A stretch of 64,000 nt of DNA from Thysanoteuthis rhombus (lineage: Eukaryota; Mollusca; Cephalopoda; Oegopsida; Thysanoteuthidae): positions 40,127,406-40,191,405 of the forward strand of contig OY735231.1 of the NCBI GenBank assembly GCA_963457665.1, read 5' to 3'. Shown here piece after piece: positions 1,821-59,771 of this stretch. The position numbers and the translations under genes were made by a program. Position 1 is the stretch's first letter, and each line of letters opens with the position of its first letter. The notes under the pieces are model-generated. The model searched no databases and was not told the origin of the DNA. It saw only the letters and a program-made list of their open reading frames with translations.

Positions 1821-4800
1821 CTGAAATTTAAAGAAAAAAAAAATTAGATTCAATGGATAGGTGATTCTGGGTATCATATCTGCTGGTATATAAGACAAAC
1901 AATTTTTTCTAAACACTGTGAAATCGCTTGTAACACAGTTTGAGTAGGGACCCCATTTTTAAAAACATTAAATTTGGTTCTCAAAATAATAGCTGAATTC
2001 AAGGGGTGTCAGAGTCAGTAATTTCAGAAATTATCTACTTGTCACACACCCATTTTATTTTTTGCCGACCAGTTTCACTAATCATCTTTGGGGATCCACG
2101 TTGTGAATGGTGATATATCTCTGAATTTTTGAGATGAGGTATTATTATCATTTCTATTATTATTCGGACCATCCTCATCTTGGTTGTTTTTCATACAACG
2201 TTTCGGCCGTTGTACTCTACGGCCTTCATCAGGTATCATCTGGTAGGTGTGGGGAAGTAACGAGCCGAACCCTTTATTTAACCGACGGGGGTATATTGAC
2301 CGCACTCCCCTCTTAGCATTAGTAGTATTATTATTGTCGGCTGAAACGTTGTATGAAAACAACCAAGATGAGTGAATGGTGATTTCCAGCAGTTGTCTGA
2401 TATTCTCGCAACATGGCAAGCCCATCGCCATTTGGGTTGTATTAATGGTTTCTATGATATCTCTGACCACTGTTTGTTTTCAAATAAAAAACGCTGTCTT
2501 GTGATCTCTCCATGTGATGTTGACCCTGGTTCTCTCCTGTGCACGTTGCACGGTTGATCCAGGGTGTGATTTGGTGTGGTACATCTCCTCCTTTGTCCAC
2601 CGGCCACAGGAAAGGATCAAAGGGCATAAGGTCAGGACTTTGTGCAGGCCATTCCCTCTAATTGGGAGTTAATTTACACCCACCTATGTTTTAGTCAAGT
2701 GTATAAACTATTGATTTTAGAAATTGCATACGAGATACAAATTATTCCAGTTTACAAAATGCACTTTGAGAAAGATTGAATTCCTTTATTGGACACCATA
2801 TATGACCCCACTGAAATGGCTCAGAAGGTAAATGTAGCTTTTGTTGTCCAGTCCCACTCGAGGAAGAGTTCAATTTACAAAGGCGATACACTTTAAAATA
2901 AATTTTTCTGTAACACATAACTTGAGTTTAGTCAGCCAAGCCAAATACAAGTTGATTATCGCGGTTAATTTTTTCCAAAATTTTCCATATTGTTTGAAAC
3001 CACACAGTTCAAGGTTTTATAATTCAATAGGTTTCTTTTCCAGCTTATACTTAATTATACTTAATTGAATTAATTAATACTGCATAACCTTAACTGTACA
3101 ACATTAAAAAATGCTCTATTTAAGGCGTTCCTGCATATATCATCCCAGCAGTTCAGCCGACCCAGGAAAAGTATCTTTTGAAAGATAAACAAAATCATAC
3201 TTTATTTCATGACACACAAAGAGATTATCAGCGACATACTCGAGTGTCGTGACACAGTTTTTAAAGCTTCAAGTTGAACTTTTAAAAATTTTCTCCTGCT
3301 GAAATATGGTGGGTCTGCTATGCCATAAAACATTGCACTTTGATCAAAATGGACAAAATACCACTTCATGATTTCAGTTACAAGTGAAAACAGATTAAGA
3401 GTTCACTTACCTTGAATATGTGTTATCAAATATAATTTTATAAATTCCCATATCTCGAGGTGTGAGTTGACCTTTGATTGTCTGCTTATGGGAGTTGCAC
3501 TTTTGAACAGGCACAAAGATTTGGGAAGACTCAAGTGAAGGTTTCGAACTGGAATTTCCAGGAGTAAAGTGGACACCAAACGCAATATCCTGGCAAAAAC
3601 AAGGAGAAAATATTTAAAAAAAAAAAATATCCACTATTACTAAAAAAAAGAAAAAAAAAAAGAAGTCTGGTTAGTCACTTAGTAGAAACTGTCACATGCC
3701 CAATGTCTTTTGGTAACATGCTGTGTTCATCATCATCATCATCAGTCTTTTAGCGTCTGTCGTTGGACATAGACCTTCCCCAGGATTTGCCACACTTCTC
3801 TATCATGGGTGTCACGGAGCCAGTACTTCCTGAACTTGTCTAGCTCGTCTCTCCATCTAACATTTTGCCGGCCTCGGTTGCGCATATGGTCTCGGGGAAT
3901 CCATGTTGTGAGTCGTGATGTCCATCGATTGTCAGCCATTCTTGCAACATGGCCAGCCCACCGCCATTTGAGATTTTTTATGGATTCTATGATGTCTCTA
4001 ACTCTTGTCTTTTCCTGGATGTGCTGTGCTGTTTTGTGGTCTCTCCATGTGAGGCCCAGCATTATTCTTTCATGTGCACGTTGCATCGTAGGACAAGGAA
4101 ATGAAAATTGCATCGGCATGCTGTGTTGGAGGTGATCAAATAAAAAATTCAAAAAGGGAAGGATCAATGGACAAGTTACTTACTAATACCCTCCAATCTA
4201 TTTAAGGGGGGGAATTATCAAAACGCAAAAAGACTTTATTTCTAGACCTAATAAGGAGTATGTATTTAAATTTTCAATCTTCCAGTTCCAGCCATTAAAA
4301 TCAAGCTCGTTGTCCTGAACGAAACAAAGTGGTAGGCTTACCTTTGGGTAAGTAGTAAACTCCCAGCAAATATCAAGGCCAGTCCGATCGACAACGACAG
4401 ATACTGTGTACGTGCAACCATAGCGGATCCAAATAACTCTTTGGGAATTTATTTCGCCTCGTTCCAGTTCTTCAAGTGACACTGTGATACTGCTTGGAAA
4501 CGCACTGAGAGGGGAAAATTTTGAAAAGAAAATTCTTTGTACAAAAGCAACCGAAATAAAATGAAAATATACTCATCCAAAATCAACAATATTACCTTTC
4601 ATATATCTAAATAAATCTTGAAAGTATAAAAGTCCCGAGCGTAGAACAGATCAAATAGAGAGTGTCAATTAATTATTTATTAGGACCGTTAACTCCGACA
4701 TACCAGATTTTTAAAAAAATGTATTTTATCAATAATTAGGTGTGCAGGAATGATTTTCATTCTATGCAGTTCAGTAGTTCTGAAGTTCAATATTTTTGCA

Positions 4801-10800: not shown

Positions 10801-13800
10801 AATACAGTATACGGTTACTATTTAAACACTACTTCCAATCCAACAAGCTCAATATTAGCAAAAACAACAATATTTACCCTATTCCCAAAGGAATTGAGCA
10901 GAACTATGCTGGATACTATGTTTTGAGTTATTCTACCTACTCTAAAATTAACGTTCAAGTATCTACCAGTACTATTGTGATTAGACACTGCAGTCTTATA
11001 CTGGTAAACCAGTACTATAGGTGGAAATACATACTATTATCTGTTAAACGGTCATTAGACACTAGAGGATAGTACTGGTAGACTGGTATCATGGGTTAAG
11101 GTACATGCTATTATCAGTTCATTGATACTACAATAATTAGACATTGGAGAGATCAACTGGTAAATCAGTCACAAATGTACAATGGATCAAAAAATGCACA
11201 TGATTTAAGTAGTCTAATAATTGTCTTTTTTATACAAGATGCTCATCTCAGAATTGCAAACTCACAATAAAAAACGCAGACCTCAAAAATTCGCAACAGC
11301 TAAATAGAAGTGGTGAATCCAAAGTGAAACAAATTTTGTTAGTCATTCAATAGAAACTGTCATGTGACCATCTTTAGACAGCATGCTGAGTTGGGAGTGA
11401 TCAATTAAAACATTGGAAGAAGGGGGTGATCAATGAATAAGTTCATTCAGTCGCCTTTTGTTGGGTAGTAATTACTAAAAAGTCTGGATTTTCAAAAAAA
11501 CAGGTGCACACAAAATATTTAACATGAACTTACATAGCAAACTGACACACCAAAACCACCACCACCAACCTATGGGGGGGGGGGGTGTTAAAAAAAAGTT
11601 TTTTCTGTTGATGTAATAAATAAATGTTGAAATTTTCAGTCCCCTAGCTCCACTGGTGCAGCCTCTGTGTGTGATACATATATAGCCAGCCAGACTAACT
11701 TGAACACAGGGAAAACCAATGTTAACAGTTTAGTTCGATGGTTTTGAACCAAAGATAAGATTGTCTCGAATCCTCCCGATTCATCAAACTTGAATCCATG
11801 AAAATATTTTGTCTTGAAACAAAAAAATGAGGATAGCTTCTCTCAGCTTCCAAGGTTATTTGTTTCCAGTGTTACGATGAGACATCATCACCGGCTTAAG
11901 TTCTGGTTTGGAATAAGAGTTGATTGTCTCTTAGACTGGTTACCAACCAAGGCTAAGGAGCCTAGTCTGCACTATAAAGCATACAGTGAAAATGACTATG
12001 AAGCATATAGTAATTAATAAATGGACAGATCTGGTTAGTCACTCAATGAAAACAGACTTGTGACCCAGGTCTTCTAACAGATTTCTGTGTCAGGAGTGAT
12101 CCATTAAAACTGTTGAAGAACGGGGTGATCAATGAATAAGTTACTCATCTCATCTTTTGTTGAGCAGCAATCAGTAAAGTCTGAATTTTCAAAAAACAAG
12201 AGGGTACAAACTGAGCAGTCAATTTAGCATAAACTTACATTGTAAATCAAACCCACCACTAAAAACCTATTAAGTGGGGAAATTTTCAAACAAAAAAAAA
12301 AAAAAAAGAAGTTTTTTTCCAGGCATAGTATGGAGTAAATGTTTAAATTGTCAGCACTCTAGGCTCCATTGGTACAGGCTGTATGCCTCATATATACATA
12401 ACAAGCCGCACTGACCGGAAAACTGAAGAAACCTATGCTGACAGTTTGGGTTTACAGTTTCTGATATGACTTCATCAAAAACTTTATAATTTTTTTCACC
12501 CTCATTGCAATACGTAAATTTCTCTACATCCTATACTTAAATTGCAAAGATATCCTCGGAAATTCCCAGATATAAAGAATTATTTTGAAAACGCATGACT
12601 GATATATTATTTTTTCTCTGGATTTTTTCGATGAATGATTGTCATTATGTATAGATTCTTCCAGAAAGTTGTCCTCATCATCTCAGCGTTCCAAACCCTC
12701 CCTATTTACAACACCCACCTGAAGGCCATAGGGTACAACAGCCAAAACATTTCAAAAGATGAACCAAGATGAAGACAACAGTCAAAAAAATCTGTACATA
12801 ATTTATTACTGTTAATAGTTTTGAATTGTTAGTTAAAAATAAATTTAAAAAAAGCATGCAAGTTAGTTGAATACCCTTGTACTCAAGAAGTGCAAATTAA
12901 GCAAAATAATTCATATTCTCTATCAGTAAAATATACCTTTAGATAATGTCATCCAATCTATCAGTTTGGGACCTATCTGAAATCATTATTTTTTGCTACT
13001 ATTTACCTCCATTTTAATTATTCTTACTTTTTATAACAACTAAACTCAGGCTGAGTTCCCGTCAGGGGTGAGTAGATAAATTGATAGCACAGATTAAAAT
13101 AAAGAATAATGAGATCCGATCTATGCTGTTGATTTATATACTCACCGCTGAAGGAAAACAGGCCTGAATTTAGTTGCGATGAGAAGCAACAACAATTAAG
13201 ATGAAGGTAAATGGTAGCAAAAAAAATCAATAATGATTAACGAGATTTCATAAAATAAAACAAATAAAAAATTGGACCATCTGAAATTATTTTTAAAAAA
13301 GATCAAGAGGCCCAGAGCTTCAAAGAAGAAAGCAAGCCAAGGCCCTAAGATGACATCTGTCAAGAAGTAGAATCAGAAATGGTCAGACCCTCTCTGTGCG
13401 ACACAGTAACAGAGATCAGAAAGAGAGGCAGACAAAGAAAGCAGTAGGAAGACAATATGAGTGTGGGTAGGCTGAGTTTCAGAGAATCCCTGAGAGCTAC
13501 CAGAGACAGGGACAGATGGTCTATCATAAATCAAACTCTGCACAGGATGGGATGGGATAAAGGGACATAACTCTCCATTTTAACTTCTTGGCTACAACAG
13601 ATCAAATCCAAACCAATCAAGTGATTAGTTTTTTCAAGTCTTTCAAAAAACAGAATACCTGTCAGTGTGTTCTGAGAGCCTAAAATACAAACAATATTTA
13701 TCATGAATTTTCATATACAGAATAATTTTTACACATATATCATTATAAAAACAAACTATTTGATTTGGTAAGTTTTCTCAAACCTAAAAAAGCTTGCTAG

Positions 13801-16800
13801 GTGTTGACAGTTTATGAAGTGGGATGTTGAATGAGGTTTAAACATCCATAAAATGAAAATTCATCAATCCATCAATTCAATACACTGGGCTACCATACAT
13901 TTATGAGAATTTCGAAATTTCTATGTTGTAAAATTTTAGGAAGATTTAAAAGAAAAAATCATCTGAACCTGTATGGACTGATAGCTACAATATAGATGAA
14001 GTAATTGTTGGATACTGATCTCAAACTCTTACATAGAATGTTCCTGGAATTCTTACCTAATACATCAGATACATCACTGGCCGATTCACTCCACTTAGTG
14101 CTACGTCTTTGAGAAGAACTTTCAGACAATTCTTTGTCTTCCTCTTCACTTTCAACACATAAAATGGAGCTTGAGCTGTCATCAGCACGGTCTTTTTGTT
14201 CTTGGTAGCATCTGTCACAGGCACGGGACTTCTTGCTGCAATAAATAAACATCAGTGACTTTTGGCAGCATGCTGTGTTGGGGGAGATCAATCAAAAAAA
14301 TGGAAAAAGAAGTGATTAATATATAGGTTATATCTCTTGACTTTTGTTGGGCATTAAAATATCAAAAATTTAAAAAAAAACTTGACTTACAGTGACTTAC
14401 ACTGAACAGGTCAAGTTAAACACTTGATAGAAACAGTCATGAGACCAGTGTCTTTTGGCAGCATGCTGTGTTGGGGGAGATTAATTAAAAAAATGGAAAA
14501 AGGAGTGATTGATATATAGGATACATCTCTTGGCTTTTGTTGGGCATTAAGATATCAAAAATCAAAAAAAAAAACGAGGGGTGACTTACACTGAGGAACC
14601 AATTTAGTATTAACTTACATTGAAAATTGACTCCCCACCCCGATTAAAACCATTTTGCAGTAGAATTTAAAAAGAAAATCATTCTCCCTACTCGTTGAGG
14701 GGAGTGAATGTGCAAAATTTCAACTTTCCACTACGGGCAGTTAGATACATAGATAAATGTCAGAACATAGAATAACCTAAACCCAGCAACAGTATCTAAA
14801 CCAGTTTTGTAGGTAGCTAAGTTGCATCAATTATCATAAAGATAAAAAGTTATTTCTCTTGCCTTTTCTTGGCTAGTGATCACTAAAAACGTCTGAATTT
14901 TCAAAAGAACAAATGTGAATGCGGCTGGACACTAACTAAGGGTTCAATTTAGCATAAGCTTACATTGCAAATCAAACCCATCACTCAAAACCTATTTAGT
15001 GGGGGGGATTTTCAAACAAAAAAAACATTATTTCTAGACATAGTAAGGAGTGAATGTTTAAATTTTCAGCCCTCTAGCTCACACACACTAAAAACTTATC
15101 AAGAGAGTGAATTTACATAAAACAAACCAAAAAAGTTTTTTCTAGATATAATAAGAAGTAAATGTTTAAACTTTCATCCCTCTAACTGCATTGGTGTGGC
15201 CTGTATACATCATATATACGTACAGAGCCAGCCAGCCAGCCAGACCTACTTGAAAACTGCAGAAATCTATGTTGACAGTTTCTAATACAAAAAATATACA
15301 AAAAACCAACTTGTTACTCACCTGCTATGTGTGGTCATCACCCAATGGTTACTGCAGTTATGGCAGAAGATGCCTCCACAAAGACGACAATGGTGCTTAA
15401 AAGTGAACAATAGAAAATATATTCAGATTTACTTTTGCAAAGGATACAAAATTTCGGACAATTTACAGTCATTGTTATTAAACTAATGGTTATGAACAAC
15501 TTTACTTCATAAAGAACTAACACTAAATTTATTTTTATCAATTTTTAAAATTTTAATCTATTTTAAATATGTACAACTTCCTGGGTGTTTGTGTTTTATT
15601 TTACATAACCATCAACTGCTCTACCAATGCTGAAGATGTAAGACCTTTCTGCTGAAGATATAGCCCTATAGATGGCCAATTAACTAATTAAGCGGGCTAA
15701 AGATTCTCTATGCTATGCGCATCTATGTGTCTCTGGGCATTCCTGGACACATTTTGGGGGCTACAACCTAGGAAATTTACATCAGGAAACCACTCAGTCA
15801 CAATTAAAAATCTTTTTTGAAAGTGCTTTTTTGGGTCTTCATCGTCATTTGGATAATTTTTTTTTTTAGACAATTTCAGTCGAAGATATTTTTTTAATGA
15901 AATATTTTAGATAATTAGTTCTAGAAGACGCATGTGCAACAGTGATTCATTTATGTGGAGTACAGATATTTCAAACCTATTATCCACCATATCCAGAACT
16001 GGTCTTATACAGTAATCGTGTTGTATACAAAGAAACATGGTAAATGCTATGGGAGACAGAATTTGATTAGCCCACCCATGAAGTACTTACCTTCCTCAGA
16101 GTAAATGAAAAGGCAGATTTACAACCAAGACAATTGTTGACTTCATTATTATCCATCCACTTCTTCATTGCTTCCATCTTCTGAGAGTAAACCAATTTGT
16201 CCGTCTGTTTCCACAAAGTGTCTTTTTCTCTGGAAACAAAAGATTGCAAGAAAAGAAAGGAATCATAATCAATCAATGTCAGGTGAAATTTCTCTATTTG
16301 ATGATCACAGAACCATCTTTACTGTTTCTGGGGTTGATGTAGTAATTTAGTGACTAAGTATGACAAAATCTTTCGATTTATCTCATTCATTACAATACCT
16401 AACCAGGTCTGGTTAGTCACTCAGTAGCAACTGTCACATGACCGTCTTACGACAGCATGTCTTGTAAGTGAGCAATTAAAAATTTGGAAAAAAATATGAT
16501 CAATGAATAAATTACTTTTTTCATCTTTTGTTAGGCAGACATCACTCAGAGAGTCCAAATTAAAAAAAAAAAACAAGTATAAACACTGCTGAACACAAAC
16601 AATGGGACCAATTTAGCAAAAACCAAATTTAAATTCAAACTGGGAGAGTTCAACTCCTCATTCAGTGTCCATTGTTGGACATTGACCTTCCCCAAGATTC
16701 GCCAGACTTCTCTACCATGGGCATTATGGAGCCAGTACTATCTGAACTTATCTAGTTTGTCTCTCCATCTTGTATTCTACCAGTCTCAGTTTCATATATG

Positions 16801-19800
16801 ATCTCTGGGGGTCCATGTGAGCTAAGACGTCTATCGGTTGTCTGCCATTCTTGCAACATGACCAGCACATTGCCATTTGAGTTTTCTAATGGATTCAATA
16901 TCTCAGACTCTTATCTATTCTCTAATATACTGTCCATATAAGGTTGAGCATGATTCTCTCTTGTGCACGTTGCATGGCTCTCAGTTTAAGAGCAAGTCTC
17001 TTGGTCAGGCTCCCTGTTTCAGCTCCATAAGTGACTATCTGGAGGATGCATTGGTTGTATACCCTTCTTTTTTAGCACAAGCGGAATTTTCTTGTCCTCA
17101 AATGTTGAGTTAACCCTGCTGAAAGCTTGCCATCTAAAAGTGATTCTTTGCTTGATTTCTTCTTTTAAGGATTTCATGGAGATTCTTTGTCCTAGGTAAA
17201 TGTACTGGAGTACTTTCTCCTGTTCTGCATTTTCAATTTTGATTGTTGCATCTTTGACTTCAACATATTCGTTGTAAATGACATTTGTTTCACTGAAGTT
17301 CCTGTGAAGACCAACTTTTTTGATTTTTGCATTTAGTCTGTCCAGCATCATTTTAGTTCATAAATATCTTCTATAATTTAGGAAACATTAGCGTACAATA
17401 ACTATTTAGTCAGGCTTTAGTGTGTGCTATATTACTTACCGTATTAATTTAATAAGTCTTTTCTTCAACTCCTTAAGGTCTTCCCGTAAGACAGCAATCT
17501 CATCATCTCTTTGTTTGATTATTTCTTGGTTTTTTGCTAGCTCAACCTGAAAAAAACCCAAAACAACAAGAACATAATTATATCCCTAAAATAAAGATGT
17601 GAATAAACGAATGCTGAGCTTCAAGAATCATTTTTTTTATACTTACCATCAACCAGTGAATTATAATCCATATAAATAATAAAATGCTTATTGCACTCCA
17701 ACTCCAAAGCAATAAATGCTCGCAACTTGAAACTGCTAAGAATGGTCAACAGAATATTTCAAGAGTTTGAAATTGGGATATTGAATATAACATTTGGAGG
17801 CAACTCCCACTTATCAAAAAATTGTGCAATTTCTGGAACTGGAGGATACATTGACTACATCGTGTTTTTATTTCCTAATAACTCAAACATTTTCTCTCCT
17901 ACCAATCCTAATATATTCAATTTCCTACCAATCCTAACACATTTTCTTTCCTAACAACATAAACACATTTTCTTTCCTAACAACATAAACACATTTTCTT
18001 TCCTAACAACATAAACACATTTTCTTTCCTAACAACATAAACACATTTTCTTTCCTAACAACATAAACACATTTTCTTTCCTAACAACATAAACACATTT
18101 TCTTTCCTAACAACATAAACACATTTTCTTTCCTAACAACATAAACACATTTTCTTTCCTAACAACATAAACACATTTTCTTTCCTAACAACATAAACAC
18201 ATTTTCTTTCCTAACAACATAAACACATTTTCTTTCCTAACAACATAAACACATTTTCTTTCCTAACAACATAAACACATTTTCTTTCCTAACAACATAA
18301 ACACATTTTCTTTCCTAACAACATAAACACATTTTCTTTCCTAACAACATAAACACATTTTCTTTCCTAACAACATAAACACATTTTCTTTCCTAACAAC
18401 ATAAACACATTTTCTTTCCTAACAACATAAACACATTTTCTTTCCTAACAACATAAACACATTTTCTTTCCTACCAATCCTAACACATTTTCTTTCCTAA
18501 CAACATAAACACATTTTCTTTCCTAACAACATAAACACATTTTCTTTCCTAACAACATAAACACATTTTCTTTCCTAACAACATAAACACATTTTCTTTC
18601 CTAACAACATAAACACATTTTCTTTCCTAACAACATAAACACATTTTCTTTCCTAACAACATAAACACATTTTCTTTCCTAACAACATAAACACATTTTC
18701 TTTCCTAAAAGCCCAATCATATATCTTTTATTTTTTCAGGTTCTATTTTGTCTATCTTATCCAGAATTGATTCCAGAAAAGCCAAAGATGCTCTTCAAAA
18801 GGAGTCTCTAACAATGAAGAATGAATAAATCTCCATTGTGCCCGACACTAACTGATAAACATTTACAATCTGTGTTGAGGATAACTAATTTACGTGATTT
18901 GAAGCCAAACATAGGATCTCTGGTTACAGCAAAATGTTGCCAAAAATCAACTTCAACATGAACTGACTGTGATTGAATGAAGGTAATAAGAATTCTTTTT
19001 TAGCATCAAGTGTGAATCTGAATTCAGTAAAAAAATTTCAATTTTTCTATTTTAATTTTCATCCTCTTTTTGTACTGATTTACAAACTTCATATACCATC
19101 ATGTACACATTCATTTTGATAGATAAATAGCAGCCTATTACAGTTATCTCAAGCTATTAGTAGGGCTAAGGGGTACCAGAGGGGCATGAATGTGCTAAAT
19201 CAAAAATATTTACTGATTCTCATGCAAACCCTTTTGGTCTCCCAAAATTTTCCAAACAGGAAATATTTTTTCTGCATTTCTTATTTTCCATTTCAGAGCC
19301 AATTTTAAAAAAAACAAAAACAGTCAGCAGCATCAAATAAAATTATATTGTATGCATAAATATTTTTCAGTGGATAATTTTTTTCTTCCTTTCAATAACA
19401 CAAAGATTATAATGATAAGATTGATTAATAGATAAAAAATTTCCAATGTTTTTTATTGACATATCACTTTTGGTCAAAATGTATTTATGATTTCAAAAAT
19501 ATTCAACATTTGGTTTATACTTTATACTGACAGCATTTTTCTATGATGCAGTTTTTTGCAGATCATTACAAACTTCTAAAAACGTTTCCGTTAAATCATT
19601 CATGACTGAACCATAAATTATTAGAATTGTGAATGGAAAACATCTGAATGAAAATATGTAGCTCTAGCTGTATTGTAATACAATTCTATCATTGTTGTAA
19701 ATTATGAACCTCCTTCCTGTCTTAATTTTGGCCTGCTGAGCCTCTTCCGCAAAACGTAATGGCCCTTTCATATACTTTTGAGACCCCTGTCCTACATTTA

Positions 19801-22800
19801 ATAGTCACTTTTCTGCATTAGTTACTTTGAACAAGTATTGTTTCAAAGCAAAATAATGAATGATGAACAAAAGTCTAAAATATTCTAGAGCTCATAGCTA
19901 TAAGATACGGCATGGGAGGCATTGGATAATGTTGGAATCTTAATAAATGGTCTCAATTAAGCAAGAATAGGAAATTTTAACTTGATTGAGCCAGACAGGA
20001 CAAAGGGAAACAGAGCTATTCATTTGGGTGGAAAAGATAAGATCGGCAGACAAACAGGAGATATTGATGGAAGATGAACCCCAGATACCAACCAAGGATT
20101 GAGCTGCGTTCCATGTATTTCTTGCCATCCACATATTTTGCATCTCATGTTCTGCTCCGTTTCATGCTCTGAAAACAAGGAGTCACTCTCTTTTCCATCC
20201 ATATGGAGAAATGGAATTCAAAATGTTTGTTCTTTACCTTTTTGCCAGGACACAGTTTTTACACAAGTACATTTTTGTCTACATGGCCTTTTCCTTCTTT
20301 GCAGCTATTAGAGAGAGTTCTGTGTTAGACCAAGGTTAACCTATGCTATTCAAAGTTGGTGACCATAAGAACAGCAGTGAAAGAAACTTCAATCATGTTG
20401 GTACTTATTTCTGAGATAGATAGTCAAAGGTGGTTTTAAATCTAAACCAGAGGAGACTGGAAAACCTGATAATGGACCTGGAAAATATCATTGAAACTCC
20501 ACCTCGCAGAGACTTCACGAATATCTCAAGTTTATTGCAAACACGTGCCATAGATCAAATACAAATCTTACAAAGTTGAATCTTTTCTTTATTTCTATCC
20601 AAAGATCTTACAAAGATCCATGGATCCAGGATATCTCAGATCCTTCGCAATATATCAACAGACTTGAATGGAATTTTTAGATGAGAAATTAACTCAGGAT
20701 GGAAAAGACCTTTAGACGAGTACTAACCCCCTACTGTATGTACTTAATGGTATCAGTGCTACAGGTATCCAGTTTGGTGCTTTGCAACAGGTGTTTGATT
20801 TGACAAGAAGTAATACCACATTTCAAAGCAGGGCAAGAAGAGCACATGTATATTCCAGCAGTCATAGAAGCTTTGAGATACATGTTTCCTAGGGGATCAA
20901 ATCAGAATATATTTTCAATCCAATTAACTTTTCACCTCAAATATTGATTATTGTTTGTACAGTAAAAATACATTACCTCAATGTCCCTCACATGCAGAAT
21001 TAGTAGTACAATCCTATAAAGAAATAAGTGGGGATGGGGGACAAAAAGAAAATCATTATTGAACAATTGTAGCCACCAAAGTTTATGCGTTTGTGTGTTC
21101 CAGCACTCCTGTCCAGACTGTTTTGTCTATAGAATTGGAAATTGGAATCAGTAGTAGACTGGACCCCTTCTAAAAATGTTTTTTTCTTCGATTCATTCTC
21201 TATTCATCTTTATATGTGTGTGTTAGTGTGGTCCAGTACTCTTGGCCATACAGTTTTGTTTACAGACTTGAAAATTAGCATTAGTACTCGACTACACAAA
21301 AATTTCATTTCTGTTGAGCCTTATTTTGACGAATTATTTATAACATCAAGATTCTCCAAAATTTAGATGTTTCTTTACTCGATTTTAGACGTTTTCCATA
21401 GGAAAACCTCAGTGATGTCATAAATAGAATTTATTAGGACCATATTTATTCTTCCATGAAATTCTTTACATCAAAATGTTTTCTAAAATTCTAGAATTTA
21501 TTCTATAAGCAAAAATATAAAATGATCTATTGTAAAAGTCCTGATTAATTGGTATAATATCAATATGAACAATCAATTTGGAAAACTAAAATGGCACGTA
21601 GTGACAAGTACCATTAATTTATACGGGAAAATTTTGAAGCATTCCCAGACTCAAAATATTGTAGTGATGTTAGGCTGGGTAATAGGAATTTGGGGTGATG
21701 GGAGGTACAGGAGATGGGGGTGTAAGAGGAAAGGGGTGCATGCTGCCTCTTCAATTGGGCTTGCTGCAAAACAAAGGATAAATGCTATTTTCACTTTTTG
21801 TATGAGAGTTGAAAAATGGTGTAAAGCAAACTTTCTGGAAGCACAGGATACTTGTATACCCTTGGTTGGGTGAAGGGTATCAACAGTTGTCGGCCAAAAG
21901 AGCCAAAAGGGAAGGGTCTCATGGTTAATGTCTATCAGGGGGGTATTTCACACTCCAACCCAAGTATGACAGGTCTGGTTAGTCACACAATAGAAAACGT
22001 CACGTGATCAGCATCTTTTATCAGCATGCTATTATTGGGGGTGCTCGATTACAAAAAGAGTGATCCATGAATTTTAGTTGGAAAGTGATCACTAAAAAAG
22101 TCTGATTTTGAAAAAAAAAAAAAGGTATTTATTCTGCCAGACAAACTAAGGGATCAATTTAGCATGAATTCACATTGCTAACTGACCCCCCCACACACAC
22201 ACACACTAAAAACCTATTGGGGGGAGGAAGGCGATGATCAGAAAAAAAAAAGTGTTTTTAATAGACATAAGGAGCATATATATAAACTCTCAGCCCTGCA
22301 GCTCCATTAGTCCGCCCTGTATGCATGATACATACATAGCCAGCCAGATCAACTTGAAAACAGAAGAAACCTAAAATGCATAAACTGGATGAGTTGTTAA
22401 GTAAGTAGTACCCTTAGTTTAGCCAGCCTGGGCTTCACCCATCACGTTATTACTTACTCGGTCTGTTTGCAATCTATGAATTTGACTTAGAAAAAACAAT
22501 CATCTGAAGTGACATCACTCACTATATTTTACTTATAACTGAAGGAAGAATAGTAAACATGTCTTTCTCAGGGGCCTTAGTGCAAAATGGACACAAACCG
22601 TCCCAGGTAGAGTTTGAACTCCCCTCGCCAAATCCATTCTCTATGCCGGTAGGTGTTTGGCCGCCATACACTTGCCTTAGTTGATAATAGCATTAAATTG
22701 CTGTTTGTAGTTACTAATGTACCAAACACCAACACTCTTGGAAATGTGATTGATCCAAATTTTATAACATGTAAAGCAGATGAAAATAGAATGTGATTGA

Positions 22801-25800
22801 GGCTGCCTTCTTTATTGAAAATCACTGCCATTGGAACCGAAATCAGTCATCACTCAAAGAAAAATATCAAAATACAGCAAGTCCTCCTTATAACAAACTA
22901 AATACTAAAACAAATGGGTCAGTTAAAAACTATTGAAAAGTTTTTATGTATTTGTGTTAAAATGTTCAAATAGACAGTTTTTCATGGTTGAAATAATTCA
23001 CACTGCTGTAATATAGGAGGTGTACATAGGAACCTAATTTATGCAGCTTATCTAAGATTACCAAATTTTGATTGCTGCCCCCTTGTTTTGACTAAATGAA
23101 ATTTTAACTCAATTAAAACTTCATATTTATTTTGCAAGAAAAAAAGACACAAACTGTCAAAGAATAATCAAGGTAGCACGTGACACCCTCCTCACACACA
23201 CACACTCAAAAAAATCTTTCAGATGATTCAAATTTTGGTCTCAAAAATGTTATTGTATTGAAAGTTCATGGTCCACATATTTGCCGAATTTATCGAACTT
23301 CACTTATCAATTCCAAAGTCAGTTATGATGGATCAATGAGTTTGATTGAGCCAGTGTTCATTATAGTAAGGGTTTAACCTATTAATAGTCATAACTCTTG
23401 AATCAGGCAATCATGGCTATTGACAGAGAACAGAAATCGACCCCTAAGGGAACTCTCTATGTAAACATAAGCCAAACCCCTGGTTCTGACGGCTTATTCC
23501 ACATATATATTGTTATAGAAGGTCGAACAAAGCTTGAAATAGGAAATGATATAACCATTACAGCTTCCAAATATTTGATATTATTAAAAATAGTTTGTAC
23601 AAATTGCTAAAATAAACATTGAAATTCATCGAGTTTACAGTTGTTTAATGTATCAGCTTAATATCTCTATTATTGTTCGAACTATCCTCATCTTGGTTGT
23701 TTTCCATACAACGTTTCGGCCATTGTACTCTACGGCCTTCATCAGGTATCATGGACACATGGTGTAGTTGTTAGAGAGTCGGACAGAATTACTGCAAGTA
23801 ATCTAATGGTTCTAGGTTCAATCCAAGTGTGAGATAATAATAATTCGAAAATACTACTACTGCTAAGAGGGGAGTGCGGTCTATATATCCCCGTCAGTTG
23901 AATAAAGGGTTCGGTTCGTTACTTCCCCCACACCTCCCAGATGATACCTGATGAAAGCCGTAGAGTACAACGGCTGAAACGATGTATGGAAAACAACCAA
24001 GATGAGGATAGTCCGAACAATAATAGAGATAATAATAATGATAACTCATCTAAAAAATTCATAGAAACAGTATCAGTTTAAGTGCAAAATTAAGTTTGAA
24101 ACTGAATTGAAGAGTTCCACAAACCAATGTACAAGTTACTTCTCTCACCTTTTGTTGGACAGTGATAACTAAAAAAAAGTGTCAATTTTCATTAAAAAAA
24201 AAGGTGAATGATTATGTTAGTCAAAGCTGCAGCTGCTGCAAATGCTGATGTTAGTCAAAGAAACCCCAAATATGAAAGCAAGCATTAGTCATAGTTGTTA
24301 GAGGCACAAAATGCATTAGTTATGCAAAAGGCAATAAAGAAAAAGATGGAAAATAAAGATGGAAACCTGTTACCCAACTTACCTTAAACTTTTCTTCATA
24401 AACTGAATTTACCTAAAAGGAATCAACACATGACTATGGTACCAACAAAAAGCAAGATTTAAAGTCAAGATGGTTGGAAATGATTGGAGATATCTTCCCT
24501 AGAAGAATCAATGTATGTAGTACACCAAATTGGTGAAATTGGTGCCCAACTGGCAAAATTTCAACTTTATTTTACAATTAATAAATAAATATGTAGTTTT
24601 AGTTTGATCGAAAGTTTATTCAATCAAAACAAGGATATGAAATAACTACATTCAAGTAATCAAAATGAAATCACTTTTTTTTTTTCTCACAAAAAAATAA
24701 GTAAATTTCACCAATTAGGGTATTTAACTGATTTGGTGCAACAACTTTTGTACAAGTACATCTCTGAGATGCCTAAATTGATTTCAACCAATTTTATCTA
24801 TTATCAGTGCATTGTCAAAATTCCCTAAGAAATTTCAGTAAAACCAATGTACTTTCCAAGAGGACAAAACACCATAAACTCTGGAATAAATTTGTTCTCT
24901 TACTGAAGGTACAAACAGAATTTCAAGCAGTAAAAGATGGAAGTAAAACTAAAAACACTTTTTATCTATGTCAACATGCTAGTCTATTTTTTCTTCAACC
25001 ATATAATGCAGATATCTGAAGATTGATAGTTAAAACTGACTGAGACTTTTTGTCCCCACCCCCCAAAAATTGATGGGGGAATATAATCTGTCCATGTTGT
25101 AGTCATTATTCCCTGTTTCTCGAGTATATTTCAATGAAATTTTGTACATATGCTTGTGGAAAAATTTTACCAGAGGAATGGTGAATTATGGCCGATCTGA
25201 TTGTTCGTTTATATTCTATTAGCAAAAACGTTTTTGTACATAATCCGGGAAATTCCTCTGATCTTGAAAGATTTTGCTGAAATTTGGCCATAATGTGTAC
25301 AAAACCTCAGGAATTGAAAAAAGGTGAGTTATGGTGATCTGACTGTATACATTTTATATGTAAATAGCCATATGTCAACATGTAAATAAATATCTAACTT
25401 TGAAACGGCTGAACCAATCAGAATGAAAATTATCATATAGGTTGTTGGGAACTAAATTACTGAAAATATGTATTGTTTTATGGTTCAAATATATTACAAT
25501 TTTTTCTTTTTCAATTTAAAAAATCAGGTACCTCTGAGTTAATGGTCCTAGTGAACAACTAATTGCCACTCACTCTCTCTCTTTCAAACATTGGTTTAAC
25601 CGTATAAACTAGACATCAGAAAATTGATATTTAAGGCTGATACTTTTTTTTGATTTTTCAATTTTATTCAACATTCTACTTTCCACATTCAATATTTTAA
25701 ATAAACATAGAAATATTTTCCTTCATTGGGTTGGGTACATTTTGAATGTTGCTTGCTGATTAATTAGCAAGAGCCTCAAATTTTCCTACAAGTTATCCAA

Positions 25801-28800: not shown

Positions 28801-31800
28801 GATGAAATCATCTGTAGTGCCCCAATGATTCTGCACTGAGTTACAGGATTTAGAAAAAAAAAAAAAAATTTTTTGATTCACTCGATAAATTTGAACTTTG
28901 ACCCAAACAACTATGAATATGCTATTTGTTGCTGACATGCAAATTGAGTGACTTTGTCCTCCTAATAATGATAAAATATATTGACATAACTATTAGCATT
29001 TCCTTCATAAAAATAGATGTACCAACTACAATAAAGTTCATTATTTGTCATCTGAAATTTGTCTCCAAATCTAGATAATCATGGATTACTCTCAGATTTC
29101 AATTTATACCCTATCATTTGACTGTCACATGCTGTAACGATGGTAAACTTTTTTTATTTGAAATGGTTGTCGACAATCACAATTATATAAAAATGATAGT
29201 GTAGTAAAAATCATTTGGGATTATTTATATATGGATAAATCATACAAATATATATCTTAGTATAAATGTATTTATTGTGAGGATTCTTTATAAAAAGCTT
29301 GATTCCACGAGTTTGCCCAGCCCTATAACACTGAATCATGGTAGTCACGATCATTGACCTGACCAAACAACAAACAGTGGTTAGGGTATTCTTGTCTCTT
29401 TTCACTTGTTTTGAGGTAGGCTACCAATTTACAATAATAATCCATCATGAAATGGACACATATTTTGCCCATGGCATTATGATGTATAGACGATTGTTGA
29501 AAAGCCTGGTTAGACTTATAAAGAGAGAGCGTATGACAGAGTCAGTATATGGTTACATTTCAATTTTTTTTTAGTAAAAATGACATCCTTTTTTTGTCCT
29601 ACTGGTTCTGTAACAGCTGTTCCCTTGAAACTGACAACTAAAGTTGATTGGTACCTTTGATCTCAGTAAGTCATGTGTCATTCTACATCACCTTGTATCA
29701 CTGTCCAAAGAGTCAGGGTGGGTGGGTGTCTAGGTAGGTTAGTAAAGTCTTGGTGACAGAGAGATAAACTGACAGAGTGGGGATCTTGAGACAGAACAAA
29801 ATAACTAAGTCATTGTGATTCATTTTTTAGGCAGAGGGGGAAATATTCCACTGGTAATTTCAAATTAGTATGGTTCCTTGTGACATACGATTGGTAAAAG
29901 CTGTACAGATTGTCGGAGGAACAAACATCCTTTATGAAAAGATCCCATTGAGCCAAAAAATGTTATTGCAGTTTGTTTTCCTTTTGTTAAATTAATATCT
30001 TGAATGAAAATTAACTATTAATTGAAAAAAATAATCAAAGTTGTAATAAATTTCAAAGTGACAGCTGTTTTATCAAAATGTAACAAAATTTTTTTAAAAA
30101 GATATAAAATTTAGTTTTCATTGTTTTTCAACGAGTTTAATGCATCGTGTGACGTACACAAAACACAAAGGTGGAGAACAGCGGCTTATAAGTGGGGCAA
30201 ACACATAGACAGAAAGGTCAGGAGTAGACAGCAGTAAGTCAGTCTGTTTGCTTTAGCATGACCACAACAAACAGACAAAAAAATGACCGGGTTTTTATAT
30301 TATAATTAATATCTAAATGATAAATTAACATTTCAAAACAAAGTATGCTAATTTGCTTAAAGCTTAATTGATTTCAAAGGCTATAAATACAGGTCTGGAG
30401 AGTCACTTAATGGAAACTTTAATGAGATCCACATCTTTTGGTAGCAGGCTATGTTAGGGGGTGATCAACTTGAAAAAATTGGAAAAAAGGGGGTGATCAA
30501 TGCATAAGTTACTTCTCTTGCTTTGTTGGGCAGTGATCACTAAAAAGTTCAAACTTTCAAAAAACAAGGGTGAATGCTGCCAGACACAAACTAAGGGACC
30601 AATTTAGCATAAACTTGCATTGCAAATAGCCTCCTCATATACACACACACATACAAAGAAGCCTACTTATGGAGGGAATTCTGGATAAACAAAATATTTT
30701 TTCCAGAGATAAAAATAATAAATAGTGAATGTTGAAAACTGTTAGTGTGGCCTCTACATACATAACCAGCAGCCAAACCAACTTAAAAACTGAAGCAACT
30801 TATGTTGACAGTTTTGGTTGACAGTTTCAAACAATGCAAATAATTGAGTAACTGGGGAATGTTGGGAAAACCCCTCAACCTGGTTACCTAACACCTATTC
30901 AGTGCTGACACAAATCTAACAAGACAAAAGCAAGTGACTAAATATTAGTAACTTAGACTCACCTCTTGGTATTTCTCTTGCAGCAAATTATACTGCTGCT
31001 CGGAGTTTTTCAATTGAGTCTGTGTTTTCTCTAACTGAAAAAAGATAGCAAGGGAAAGACGGCATTTGTTGAAAGGCAAACAGGAGAACTTGGGGGGGGG
31101 AAGTGAGGGTGCATAACCGTAATCATTTTAACCATTGGTGCAAAATGAAACCTTTCTTCTCGAGAAATTGTTCTGATCTGAACCCTTTCAAGACTGTCGT
31201 GGAAAAGTGATCATGCTTACCAAATTGTAGTCAGATAACAATTGGTGCTCACTAAAAGTATTTGTGCTCTATCACGAAATTTAAAATCACTATTTAAAAC
31301 TATTCAATCAAAACAAAGTGTTTGAAAGCAAAAAAAAGAAAAGGAAAATGTAGAGAAAAAACGAAAAATGAGAGTGAGAATGAAAATAAAAAGAAAGCAT
31401 GAAGAAAAAAATCGAAAAAGAGATGAAAAAAAAATTGGATGAAAGCTGAAAAAAGAAAATTTTTTTAAAATGAAAAATGAATAATTAATTTTTTAAAATT
31501 TAATATCACGAAAGATGAGCCAAGTATCTTCATCAAATCAAATAGTAAAAGGCACCTTTACTGCCCTCGGGTGGATCAGCAAGCAAGGTATTATTGTGAG
31601 TTCAGGATAACATAGAATTACACGTATATTCACATTGCTTTGTACATACTACAATCACCATAGTCAGAGACAACCCAAGGGCTCATCTTTAATGTGCTAC
31701 TAACCTTTCGAAAAGCATAAGGCACAAATCCAAACCCAATTATTCCATTCTAATCACACAGCTTAGGGTGTACCCAGTTAGCTGCTGAATGCACCAGCTA

Positions 31801-46800: not shown

Positions 46801-47729
46801 CTTGTTAATGCACTTAATACAATAGTGAACAATAACCATGTAGATTGAATATTGTACAGTGAAAATTTCAGATGAAAATTCAGCAAATAACTGTCAAGCT
46901 ATAGACACATATCCACCTCATGTATACCAAGAGAAAGATATTAACCAATCAAAAAGATATTACCTAGTTATACGGCCATTAGAAACACACTGTTGGATAG
47001 TATCAGCAAGACGTTTGTGCACGAGGGCAAAACGTATTAATGCCCGACCTTTTCCAATTGATGTCCGATACTGAAAAGAAAAGATTTTTAAAAAGGTCTG
47101 GTTAGTCACTTGATGGAAACTGTCTTTTGACAGCATGCTATGTTGGAGGCAATCAATTAAAAAGTTGGAAAAACGGGTGATCAATGAATGAATGAAGTTA
47201 CTTCTCTCGCCTTATGTTGGGCACTGAATTTTTTGAAAAAAGTGTGAATACTGCCTGGCACACACTACAATTTAGCATAAACTTACATTGCAAATTGAAT
47301 CCCCATCAAACAAAACAATTTAGGGAGAGGAGATAAAGAATAGAAACATTCTTTCTAGATAAAATAAAAAGTAAATTTTTAGGCATTTCGGACAGCCTGT
47401 CTTTATGATACTTACTTAGCCGGTCAGCTACACCAACTTGAAAACTGAAAAAAACTATATCGAGAGTTTTGATGACAGTTTTGGTTGATGTTCCCTAATA
47501 TGATTATCATCAATCACACGCTATCACAGATTTCTTGAGATATAACAAAAAAAAAAAGCAGACTCTATCAAAAAACTGCAAAGTTGAGTATAAAATTTTT
47601 GACATTCGTTTCTGTATTGAAGCTAAATATTTCCAAAACATAATCATGGCATCAAAAATAGAATGACTATATCATCCAAAATGCAACAAAATTCATAGTA
47701 AAATGAAAAAGTTACAAATATATTTATAT

Positions 47730-50700: not shown

Positions 50701-53700
50701 CTTCGTACTGGCTGTTTTCAAATCTTTTTTTCACGGCAAGTAGCAAATGTGTGCACATTTCTAAAATTCTAAAACAGTCAGTGGAATCCTCTATCAGTGC
50801 AGAAGTGGTGGTGAGGAAAACGATGTAATGTTGCCAGTAATACATTTTATATCTGTTTTTTGGGGGACATCTGTACATTTGACTGTTCTAAGAGAATGAT
50901 TAAAATTCTTATTAAATCATATAATCCCAAGTTTTGAAAATACCATTATTACATTAAAAACAACATTTCGCAGTTAATATGCTTCCATCATAAAAACCGC
51001 AATATCTAAAAGAAAAAGAAAAAGAATGTTGTAGATAAATCAAAAAATGATCCCTGCATAAGCAAAGGTTTTGAAACTACCGACATTACGCTACTGTAGA
51101 TACAGAGATGATATGATCTAAATGTTTATCTTATTGCACAGTTTTTATGACAAAGGTGCAATGAGAAACTTCCTCCAATCTCAATCTAGTCACTTGTGAG
51201 ATCACAGATTTAGAGGTCACAAGCTCAATGTACAAAAAGACAGCTGTAAAAAAAGATAATGCTCGACCTTTTCCAATTGATGTCCGATACTGAAAAGAAA
51301 AGATTTTTAAAAAGGTCTGGTTAGTCACTTGATGGAAACTGTCTTTTGGCTGCATGCTATGTTGGAGGCGATCTATTAAAAAGTTGGAAAAACGGGTGAT
51401 CAATGAATGAATTAAGTTACTTCTCTCGCCTTATGTTGGGCACTGAATTTTTTGAAAAAAGTGTGAATGCTGCCTGACTCACACTAAGGGATCAATTTAG
51501 CATAAATTTACACTGCAAATTGAATCCCCATCAAACAAAACAATTTAGGGAGAGGAGGAAAAGAACAAAAACATTCTTTCTAGATAAAATAAAAAGTAAA
51601 AACAGATATCAGAAGATTCTCTTTCAAGTACCGAATCACTGATAAGGGAAACAATCTTCTAGAGGTAATAGTGCAGGCACCAACCTTGAATGCATTCAAA
51701 AACCACCTGGACAGAATCTGGGAGTGAAATGGAATTATTTATGAGCTTGATGCAGATCTTTATGAAATATCACCTGATCACAGAAAAAGATATGAAGCGA
51801 TCAACATAGGTTAGAATCTAGTATAAGAAGCCATTTCTAAGGCCTTATCCCAGAATACTATTACTAATATAATTGAATTACCAAAACAGATGTCAAGAAA
51901 TCTACAAAATCCATTCCAAATATTTTGAAGGAAAAAATAAATAAACAATGCTCTAATTCAATGTATTTAGCAGCTTCAATTTCTTTCAATTAACAAAGTT
52001 TACTTTTTCTCCTAACCTCATAATCTGTTAACATTTTTTTCAGGTTGAATTTTTTTAGCATCTTTTTTTTTGAAAATTGTTTCTTTAATACAAGCTCATA
52101 TTGTATCAGGAGTTAAATATCTTGATACGAATCATATCATGAAAAAAATGTATCATCGTGGCTCTATTTGGCAGCATGCTGTGTTGCGGATGATCAATAA
52201 CAAAATTAGAAATAAAGGGTGATTAATGAATAAATTGCTTTTTTTACTTTTTGTTGGGCAGTGAAATGTCTGAATTTTCCAAAAATAAGCATGAATACTG
52301 CCAGACACAAACTAGGGATCAATTTACCATAAACGTACATTGTAAATTGAACCACTACTAAAAAACTTGGGGGGTGGGGATTCTAAAAAACAAAACAAAA
52401 TACTTTCCCCCTCGACATAAAGGAATAAATTTTTTAAATTTCAGCCCTGTAGCTCCACTTGTGTGGCCTGTATGAGTTACATACATAGATAGCCAGACAG
52501 ACAGACCAAATAATAAACTGATGAAACCTTTGACAGTTTTTGGTTGAGTTAAAAACCAATTGAAATATTTAAACATGGAAAAATTGGAAACTGGCAAAAA
52601 TTCTATTGTTACGTTCATAATCTTGAAACTTGTAGCGATTTTGAGTTATTCACAAGAAAGAGCTTATACAGATCCATCAACACTAATCCGGTATTATTGG
52701 AACATGTTATTAGTCATTGTGCCGGATTACAGGTGGTTAAGTCAGGTAAATACCTCATACTACAATGAAAAAAATAGAGACCATACAGCGATAACTTGCA
52801 GTCTACGGTTTTGATTTGTGATGGTTTTAATGAGTAATCAAGGTACTGCTTTATAAACAATTGAAACTAAGTATAATCTATCTCTGAATTTTTGAGATGA
52901 GGTATTATTATTATTTCTATTAATATTCGGACCATCCTCATCTTAGTTGTTTTTCATACAACATTTCGGACGTTGTACTCTACGGCCTTCATCAGGTATC
53001 ATTTGGTAAGTATGGGGAAGTAACAAACCAAACCCTTTATTTAACCGATGGGGGTATATTGACCGCACTCCCCTCTTAGCATTAGTAGTATTATTATTGT
53101 CTCACACTGGGATTGAACCTAGAACCATCAGATTACTTGCAGTAATTTTGTTTGATTCTGTAACCACTACGCTATGTGTCCATGATAGTTCTAGGTTCAA
53201 TCCCAGTGTGAGACAATAAAAATACTACTAATGCTAAGAGGGGAGTGTGGTCAATATACCCCTGTCGGTTGAATAAAGGGTTCGGTTCGTTACTTCCCCA
53301 CACCTACCAGATGATACCTGATGAAAGCCGAAACATAATATGAAAAACAACCAAGATGAGGATGGTCCGAATATTAATAGAAATGAGTATAATCTGAAAG
53401 AGAAAAATGACCTAGAACAGTGTGGCTTTGAAAAGTGCAGACAAATTTTGGAACGGGTTTTGATTTGTGTGAGTTTCGATCAAGTACAGTTGCACAATTG
53501 CTGGACAAACAAATGAAACTAAGAATGTGCTGAAAATTAAAATTAAATCATAATGAGATTGAATAGTGTGCTTTCGAAAAGTGCGGAAAAATTCGGGGAT
53601 AGATCTTGATTTGGGTGGGTTTTGATGAATGAGACCCTCAAAAGAAGAAGGAATCAAGCGAAAAATCACCTGAAGTTGGCAAGCCTTTGGCAGAGCAAGC

Positions 53701-57639: not shown

Positions 57640-58090
57640 TTCACTTTGTACTAATACCCTTAGGGAAATAGCTGGGCAGTTGAGACCCTCTAGCTCTATA
57701 ACGCATAAGGCAGTCCTTCTGAGAGAAACTTACCCTGAGAGAAAAAACTACAGCTCGACAGAAGCCATAGCTGGTCCCCAGCCCATGTGAAGGAGGAAGG
57801 CTTGGTTTGGAGTACTTGCAACTCTACCCCATGAAAACCTACCCACAACTGAAACCAGAGTAGAGTGGTTGCAGCCTCATGCTCAATAAAGAATCTACTG
57901 GAATATACATCATAACAATACTGCCACACCTTGCAGACTAAGTCTGATAATTTGTCTGGATTTTTAGACGAAGGATTATCATACATAGATTTCTTCTGAC
58001 AGTTGTCCTCATCTAGGTTCATCTTTTAAACACAATGTTTCAATCGTTGTACCCTATAGCCTTCATCAGATGAATGTCTTGAATTTGGTT
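57640..58090 (-). repeat. Unclassified repeat-like block ending in a diverged hammerhead-family tail
   Basis: At 57985-58085 the minus strand reads CTGATGAAGGCTATAGGGTA, CAACGATTGAAACATTGTG and GATGAACCTAGATGAGGACA, a relative of the hammerhead-motif family and of 12655-12792. The rest (57640-57980) is less AT-rich and has a 108-codon minus frame without recognisable domains. Confidence 0.45.
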
Positions 58091-59429: not shown

Positions 59430-59513
59430 ATCATCTTGTAGTCAGCTATACCAGCTTAAAAACTGAAGACTTATGTTGACTGTTTTTGTAACAGTTTTGG
59501 GCGATGATTTTAG
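59430..59513 (+). repeat. Family A tail fragment (A1)
   Basis: AGTCAGCTATACCAGCTTAA to TTGTAACAGTTTTGGGCGAT. It is the target of SINE insertion 4. Confidence 0.6.
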
Positions 59514-59771
59514 CAAAGTAATCTGATGGTTCTAGGTTCAATCCCAGTATGAGACAATAATAATACTACTAATGCTAAGAGGGGAGTACGGTCAATATAC
59601 CCTCGTCGGATAAATAAAGGGTTCGGTTCGTTACTTCCCCACACCTCCCAGATGATACCTGATGAAGGCCGTAGAGTACAACAGCTGAAACGTTGTATGA
59701 AAAACAACCAAGATGAGGATGGTCCGAATATCAATAGAAATAATAATAATACCTCATCTCAAAAATTCAGA
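59514..59771 (+). mobile_element. Hammerhead-motif SINE insertion 4 (simple, 5' truncated, 11-bp target duplication)
   Basis: Flanked by GATGATTTTAG at 59503-59513 and 59772-59782. It starts inside the tRNA-like head just before the B box (GGTTCTAGGTTCAATCCC) and runs to the complete tail (CTCATCTCAAAAATTCAGA). Core at 59659-59691. The only copy without an inverted piece. Confidence 0.9.

What the first reader, a model, noticed from the sequence alone, without database searches (positions are those of the whole stretch)
2115..2371. SINE-like family with a hammerhead-type catalytic core; stem II covaries between copies
Seen: in four insertions (2115-2371, 23662-24069, 52880-53385, 59514-59771) the body contains CTGATGA, a 6-bp stem II with loop AGAGTACA, then GAAAC. 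Stem II is GGCCGT/ACGGCC in the first copy and AGCCGT/ACGGCT in the plus copy at 23948-23980, a compensatory change; a G-U wobble keeps it in the copy at 23713-23745. A 5-bp stem III (GTTGT/ACAAC) follows. Known: CUGAUGA-stem II-GAAA is the conserved hammerhead core, and hammerheads occur in Penelope-like elements and retrozymes. Inference: a ribozyme-derived module in a tRNA-headed retroposon. Against activity: the bases after stem III read CCAA where a UH cleavage site and two closing pairs are expected.
Basis: partly seen in the sequence, partly recalled or inferred. Interest (0 to 1): 0.78.

Follow-up and report, generated by a model that had tools for sequence, protein, structure and literature searches.

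The report
tRNA-headed SINE with Penelope-type ribozyme end
A short selfish DNA element in an animal genome starts with a tRNA-like promoter and ends with a piece that looks taken from a Penelope-type retrotransposon, ribozyme core included, and its insertions look like those of Penelope elements, so it is probably a parasite of those elements rather than of the usual LINEs.

Summary
The hammerhead reading is right in kind but its register is wrong. This is a type I hammerhead without helix III, the form published for Penelope-like elements (PLEs). 37 of 53 copies keep the whole core; 300 simulated windows gave none. "Stem II covaries between copies" is not supported inside the family; an older homologous family adds one compensatory switch in stem I. 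Insertions also look PLE-like: 18 of 30 genome loci, and 3 of 4 window insertions, are head-to-head inverted pairs in one short target-site duplication, and only one member carries a ~30 bp 3' tail. The 3' end is open in a frame that could be a PLE ORF start. Best reading: a pol III-promoter SINE mobilised by a PLE. Not shown: the autonomous partner (searched, not found), ribozyme activity, expression, the species. Ten paper searches listed no such SINE; key papers and repeat databases were unavailable.

The parts
2115..2371 (-). Insertion 1: main copy on the minus strand with 3' tail, plus a 33-nt inverted piece of the same module at its head; 12-bp TSDs 2103-2114 and 2372-2383
2192..2237 (-). 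Minimal hammerhead, complete: GATAC-CTGATGA-stem II-GAAAC-GTT^GTATG
2115..2194 (-). Open frame [26 protein letters not shown] through the 3' tail, candidate start of a PLE ORF
23662..24069 (.). Insertion 2: head-to-head pair, minus copy without tail (left), plus copy with head, body and tail (right); TSDs 23650-23661 and 24070-24081, 1 mismatch
23705..23750 (-). Minimal hammerhead of the left copy, complete, G-U in stem II
23943..23988 (+). Hammerhead of the right copy, A-U in stem II, but GAT at the cleavage site (no UH)
23747..23844 (+). Pol III (tRNA-like) head of the right copy
52880..53385 (.). Insertion 3: head-to-head pair, minus copy with head and tail (left), plus copy without tail and with stem II deleted (right); TSDs 52870-52879 and 53386-53395
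   Evidence: TSD read by eye
52955..53000 (-). Hammerhead of the left copy, GAAAT and one stem II mismatch
59514..59771 (+). Insertion 4 (= locus L001): single copy truncated inside the head, with tail; 11-bp TSDs 59503-59513 and 59772-59782
59654..59699 (+). Hammerhead of insertion 4, one stem II mismatch, UH and stem I intact
58016..58079 (-). Older homologous family (family 2): same module with other letters in stem I
12617..12802 (.). Older homologous family, inverted pair of module pieces, tail on the left member

Best explanation
A SINE of about 310 bp: a pol III (tRNA-like) head, a body, and a 3' module that looks like the pLTR-to-ORF junction of a Penelope-like element: a hammerhead without helix III, then about 80 nt that could be the start of the PLE ORF. 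Proposed mechanism: pol III makes the RNA (inferred). A PLE reverse transcriptase/GIY-YIG endonuclease binds the module (inferred), cuts both target strands, and starts cDNA inside the RNA, mostly at either of two sites about 30 nt apart (inferred from the element ends). Each cut strand primes its own cDNA; the two are joined head to head within one TSD (structure shown, process inferred). The hammerhead is inherited with the module. It may cleave as a dimer or with protein help, but none of the 18 partner copies begins at the predicted cut, so cleaved RNA is probably not the usual template.
For: Complete hammerhead core (stem II at least 5 of 6 pairs, UH, stem I 4 of 4, G-U allowed) in 37 of 53 copies; a similar, stricter descriptor gave 2 copies in the window and 0 hits in 300 simulated 64-kb windows. 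Inverted head-to-head partner in 18 of 30 loci; neighbouring pieces within 200 nt: 20 head-to-head, 0 tail-to-tail, 1 same orientation. Matching TSDs: 16 of 18 partner loci at score >=8 against 0.8% of 870 mismatched pairings; all 18 at >=7 against 4.1%. Partner 3' ends at element positions 287-298 in 17 of 18 and at 266 in 1, never with the tail; main copies run to 314-321. Published PLE features that match: minimal hammerheads lacking helix III, in pLTRs (PMC6155905, PMC7761336; passages); head-to-head inverted pLTRs, TSDs of 8-10 bp in the cases described, an optional 31-bp tail on one pLTR, and pLTRs that carried unrelated sequence in trans (PMC3846280; passages); cutting and extension of both strands, internal RT start, tail equal to the stretch between two RT start sites (PMC11167929; passages and the main-text section). 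Module and tail open in one frame in both families. B box in 25 of 26 heads, A box in 14 of 26, both exact in 13. PLE endonuclease relics abound (150 matches among 150 scored of 2991 candidates).
Against: No autonomous PLE with this module was found. The PLE lineage recovered has a different 3' end. The module is not shown to be joined to a PLE protein anywhere, and the ORF reading rests on about 26 codons. The candidate start ATG lies 2 nt after the predicted cut, whereas in the anole PLE the cut lies 26 bp after the start codon. No Rfam hammerhead match; the head matches no tRNA model. The shorter 3' end lies at the edge of an AAT run, which an ordinary SINE end could also do. The 30 loci were picked by a query that contains the tail, so tail presence on the main copy is forced; the partner ends and the window set are not. 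No control SINE family was examined for inverted pairs.
Confidence: 0.66

Rival explanations
1. An ordinary tRNA-type SINE mobilised by a LINE; the inverted pairs come from twin priming and the hammerhead look-alike is a fossil or chance.
For: Pol III head, 5' truncation and TSDs are typical of SINEs; the shorter 3' end lies at an AAT run; most known SINEs use LINEs (my knowledge).
Against: Both outer ends of a pair are element 3' ends and the two copies overlap by up to ~220 nt (L023); twin priming, as I know it, gives one 3' end and little overlap. The tail end is not a poly(A) or simple repeat in the 30 loci. The complete hammerhead is not expected by chance.
Confidence: 0.16
2. A retrozyme: the hammerhead processes tandem transcripts into RNA circles that are the mobile form.
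For: Animal retrozymes carry type I hammerheads in ~300 bp units and are suspected to use PLEs (PMC7229834, PMC7761336; passages).
Against: Neighbouring pieces are head-to-head (20), hardly tandem (1 same orientation). Helix III is absent. The element has pol III boxes. None of 18 partner copies starts at the predicted cut.
Confidence: 0.07
3. The 3' module is a PLE remnant, but today's copies move by another enzyme and the hammerhead is only a decaying passenger.
For: 16 of 53 copies lack part of the core; no significant within-family covariation; in the anole PLE hammerhead mutants insert normally in vitro (PMC11167929).
Against: Copies 93-96% identical to the window copy show the two-end, head-to-head pattern, so whatever moved them recently makes that pattern.
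Confidence: 0.11

Closest known systems
Minimal type I hammerheads of Penelope-like elements
   Same: CUGAUGA, short stem II, GAAAC, UH at once after, no helix III, beside a candidate ORF start; thousands of dispersed minimal motifs are reported in animal genomes (PMC7761336, passage)
   Different: here it sits near the 3' end of a pol III SINE; the cut falls 2 nt before the candidate ATG instead of 26 bp after it as in the anole element (PMC11167929)
Penelope insertions (Adineta vaga Penelope families; Anolis Poseidon PAc)
   Same: head-to-head inverted copies in one short TSD; optional ~30-40 bp tail; unrelated sequences carried by pLTRs in trans in A. vaga (PMC3846280, passages)
   Different: no RT/EN ORF here; about 310 bp with pol III boxes and many copies (40 scored matches among 2121 first-look candidates)
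S. mansoni Sm-alpha and animal retrozymes
   Same: short non-autonomous retroelements with type I hammerheads
   Different: retrozymes occur as tandem repeats and their hammerheads have a helix III, weak in amphibians (PMC7229834, passages); this family is not tandem and lacks helix III
LINE-tailed tRNA SINEs
   Same: pol III head, body, and a 3' end borrowed from the helper element
   Different: the borrowed end here resembles a PLE, not a LINE

Membership tests
Hammerhead ribozyme (PLE-type minimal, type I) | CUGAUGA and GAAA joined by stem II | tested here: met
   CTGATGA with GAAAC in 41 of 53 copies; stem II 92.3% of cells paired on 41 distinct rows
Hammerhead ribozyme (PLE-type minimal, type I) | UH cleavage site followed by stem I pairing with the bases before CUGAUGA | tested here: met
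   GTT in 45 of 53; stem I 98.2% of cells paired; full core 37 of 53
Hammerhead ribozyme (PLE-type minimal, type I) | stems supported by covariation | tested here: inconclusive
   not inside the family. Across two families: both-side cells 16 (6 of 500 shuffles), score 0.312 (3 of 500), but pairs with both-side change (196 of 500) and pair types (220 of 500) are not raised; essentially one stem I switch, and 14 of 46 family-1 rows were hand-picked
Hammerhead ribozyme (PLE-type minimal, type I) | match to an Rfam hammerhead model | tested here: not met
   I expect those models to need helix III (inference)
Hammerhead ribozyme (PLE-type minimal, type I) | self-cleavage | not testable with these tools
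   needs an in vitro assay, as a dimer or with PLE protein
SINE | internal pol III promoter of small-RNA origin | tested here: inconclusive
   B box 25 of 26, A box 14 of 26, both 13 of 26 heads; no tRNA model match
SINE | short, dispersed, non-coding, TSD-flanked | tested here: met
   ~310 bp; 20 of 30 loci with TSD score >=8, control 0.8%
Penelope-like element (non-autonomous derivative) | head-to-head inverted copies inside one TSD | tested here: met
   18 of 30 loci; 3 of 4 in the window
Penelope-like element (non-autonomous derivative) | optional ~30-40 nt 3' tail on one member | tested here: met
   0 of 18 partners carry it; exactly one member in each of the 3 window pairs
Penelope-like element (non-autonomous derivative) | sequence shared with an RT/GIY-YIG-coding PLE | tested here: inconclusive
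Retrozyme | tandem units with hammerheads and circular RNA | tested here: not met
   1 same-orientation piece against 20 head-to-head; circular RNA not testable here

The most novel reading that the evidence does not exclude
The first SINE class that parasitises Penelope-like elements instead of LINEs: a pol III transcript carrying a PLE recognition module with a helix-III-less hammerhead, copied by a two-strand, internally primed mechanism that writes two cDNAs head to head into one target site. If true, SINE-type parasitism has arisen in the third class of eukaryotic retroelements, and a large set of natural insertions records where PLE reverse transcription starts and stops.
Probability: 0.5. 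Interest if true: 0.75.

Novelty: new variant of a known kind. Interest (0 to 1): 0.62.

Why it matters
How Penelope-like elements insert, and what their conserved minimal hammerhead is for, are open questions; the first active full-length PLE protein in vitro was reported only in 2024 (PMC11167929). A high-copy SINE using the same machinery would give many young insertions whose junctions show the RT start sites, the use of both target strands and the usual stops. It would also give a small natural RNA for testing PLE protein binding and protein-assisted hammerhead cleavage. It would extend the SINE rule (borrow the helper's end) from LINEs to PLEs.

Tried and rejected
Cleavage at the downstream GGTC: no stem I (by eye). 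Rfam hammerhead models: no match.

Partner PLE: a GIY-YIG family search (7 matches) led to an old PLE lineage. Its 3' ends, aligned over 35 loci (three duplicate loci removed), hold a hammerhead-like vestige about 580-630 nt after the endonuclease but no homology to the SINE module. The 5' stretches I could read do not show the module either. A match with an apparent 961-aa open frame is probably an artefact of a masked run read as open. A weak 71% match beside L062 was looked at and not taken as partner. The 12 family 2 loci show no match to protein pieces of that PLE lineage, nor does a 601-bp stretch upstream of one more copy. The endonuclease has no clear PDB relative by sequence (one hit at E 0.25).

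Species: not identified. A 2.73 Gb assembly with about 48 large scaffolds made me think of decapodiform cephalopods; that is a guess, passages of two papers say such genomes hold almost no SINEs (PMC8967140, PMC13218726), and nothing rests on it.

Papers: 10 searches; their listings showed no SINE described as PLE-mobilised. I read passages of PMC13282606, PMC7229834, PMC3846280, PMC6155905, PMC7761336, PMC8967140 and PMC13218726, and the main-text section of PMC11167929. Cervera & de la Pena 2014 and Lunse et al. 2017, both on PLE hammerheads, are not held, nor are two further PLE papers that I asked for by DOI. Repbase and SINEBase could not be searched. Twin priming and the family name Ceph-SINE are recalled, not tested.

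Full report
WHAT IS THERE. The four insertions have the coordinates given, each bounded by a target-site duplication of 10-12 bp (the third read by eye). Three of the four are not single copies: they are two copies of one element, head to head (the second copy in insertion 1 is only 33 nt). The element is about 310 bp: a head with pol III boxes (of 26 main copies that reach far enough, B box in 25, A box in 14, both in 13), a body with AAT repeats, then the hammerhead-like module, then a tail ending CTCATCTCAAAAATTCAGAGATATAC. The head matches neither the Rfam tRNA model nor ARAGORN, so 'tRNA-like' rests on the boxes.

THE HAMMERHEAD. Another register fits: 5' GAUAC CUGAUGA A GGCCGU AGAGUACA ACGGCC GAAAC GUU ^ GUAUG. 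GUU is the UH site, stem I is AUAC with GUAU, and helix III is reduced to ACGU, a palindrome that can pair only between two copies or molecules. PLE hammerheads are described as minimal, lacking helix III, and possibly cleaving as dimers (PMC6155905 and PMC7761336, passages). I collected 53 copies (52 of this family and one older relative) from 29 genome loci and the window. CTGATGA with GAAAC is kept in 41 and GTT in 45; the full set (stem II at least 5 of 6, UH, stem I 4 of 4, G-U allowed) in 37. A stricter descriptor finds two copies in the window (2232 and 23745, minus) and none in 300 first-order Markov simulations of it. Against: as a single strand the competing hairpin is favoured (stem I ~0.15, hairpin ~0.8), and no Rfam hammerhead model matches.

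COVARIATION. Seven of the 53 rows were left out of alignment A1 (deletions, junctions inside the core, the older relative). On the 46 rows (41 distinct) there are 3 cells with changes on both sides, reached by 140 of 500 shuffles; the score is reached by 55 of 500. An older family with the same module was found through the window copy at 58016-58079 (40 matches, 40 scored of 627 candidates). With 14 of its modules (two each from L074 and L078; L072 is the window copy) and 14 hand-chosen modules of the first family (alignment A2), both-side cells are 16 (6 of 500 shuffles) and the score is reached by 3 of 500, but pairs with such a change (196 of 500) and pair types (220 of 500) are not raised. 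Stem I position 9/50 is U-A in 14 rows and C-G in 9. That is a compensatory difference, but essentially one switch between two families.

HOW IT INSERTS. The 30 loci are the best-scoring of 40 scored among 2121 candidates, found with a query that contains the tail; L001 is window insertion 4. Of the 30, 18 have an inverted partner at the head of the main copy. Pieces within 200 nt are 20 head-to-head, 0 tail-to-tail, 1 same orientation. The pair shares one TSD: score 8 or more in 16 of 18 against 0.8% of 870 mismatched pairings, and 7 or more in all 18 against 4.1%; most are 9-18 bp with at most one mismatch. Of the 12 loci without partner, 4 have a score of 8 or more. Partner 3' ends fall at element positions 287-298 in 17 of 18 and at 266 in one; none has the last ~30 bp. 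Since the query contained the tail, the main copies were bound to have it; but in the three window pairs, not chosen that way, exactly one member has it too. The shorter end lies at the edge of the AAT run. Partner 5' ends cluster just before the hammerhead: 9 of 18 at positions 193-203 (ATGATACC is at 199), 3 at 158, 3 at 211-218, 3 at 70-105; none at the predicted cut after 241. In the coordinate list of family 2, two pairs lie head to head (C26 and C8), and L074, L078 and the window copy at 12617-12802 look alike.

WHY PENELOPE. In Adineta vaga, described Penelope insertions have inverted pLTRs, 8-10 bp TSDs (some none) and an optional 31-bp tail on one pLTR; inverted repeats are most often head-to-head, and pLTRs have carried unrelated genes in trans (PMC3846280, passages). 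The purified Anolis PLE protein cuts and extends both strands and starts cDNA inside the RNA; the tail is the stretch between two start sites; its hammerhead is protein-assisted and not needed for insertion in vitro (PMC11167929, main-text section). The SINE fits: two main ends about 30 bp apart, a tail on one member of each pair seen, no poly(A). The 3' part is also open in one frame in both families, [26 protein letters not shown] and [24 protein letters not shown] (the second is my consensus of decayed copies), as would suit a PLE ORF start next to a hammerhead. This is suggestive, not proof.

WHAT IS MISSING. The genome holds many PLE relics (150 scored of 2991 candidates; 150 scored of 325); I saw no full-length open PLE frame in those I read. 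Their 3' consensus over 35 loci carries a hammerhead-like vestige but not this module. If the partner is a PLE, it is another one, unknown here. No control SINE was checked for inverted pairs.

VERDICT. A pol III SINE whose 3' end resembles a PLE junction and whose insertions carry the PLE signature. Known parts (SINE, minimal PLE hammerhead, PLE insertion) in a combination that the listings of my ten paper searches did not show; two key papers and the repeat databases could not be read. New variant of a known kind.

Noticed in passing
window 12617-12802 and 58016-58079; L072-L083: An older, decayed family with a homologous hammerhead module and tail, also seen in head-to-head pairs, with other stem I letters.
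   Followed up: partly
L035-L037, L039-L067: Decayed PLE endonuclease relics whose 3' consensus (35 loci) holds a hammerhead-like vestige, CTCTGAAAAAGATGGCTGGCAACCATCGAAATGCATC, about 580-630 nt after the endonuclease.
   Followed up: partly
L004, L009, L011, L012, L016, L017, L024, L027, L030, partner copies: Nine of 18 partner copies stop at or near ATGATACC, the 5' edge of the hammerhead, with several different junctions; it may mark the limit of protein-bound RNA or a microhomology site with the head.
   Followed up: partly
window 11300-12500, 14260-15300, 16400-16620, 21960-22400, 30380-30830, 43400-43790, 47040-47480, 51260-51540, 52160-52500, 62670-63040: Another old dispersed repeat (GTCTGGTTAGTCACTCAATAGAAACTGTCACATGACC ... 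CCAATTTAGCATAAACTTACATTGC), about ten decayed copies in the window.
   Followed up: no
window 17757-18810: Tandem array of a 26-bp unit.
   Followed up: no
window 49412-49549: Hairpin with a sub-threshold match to a plant miRNA family (MIR859, 40.9 bits, cut-off 130); probably just an inverted repeat.
   Followed up: no
window 38232-39179 (-) and 40860-41474 (-): Long open frames that look like coiled-coil exons; the first has a weak CENP-F leucine-zipper match (6e-06, below the curated cut-off).
   Followed up: no
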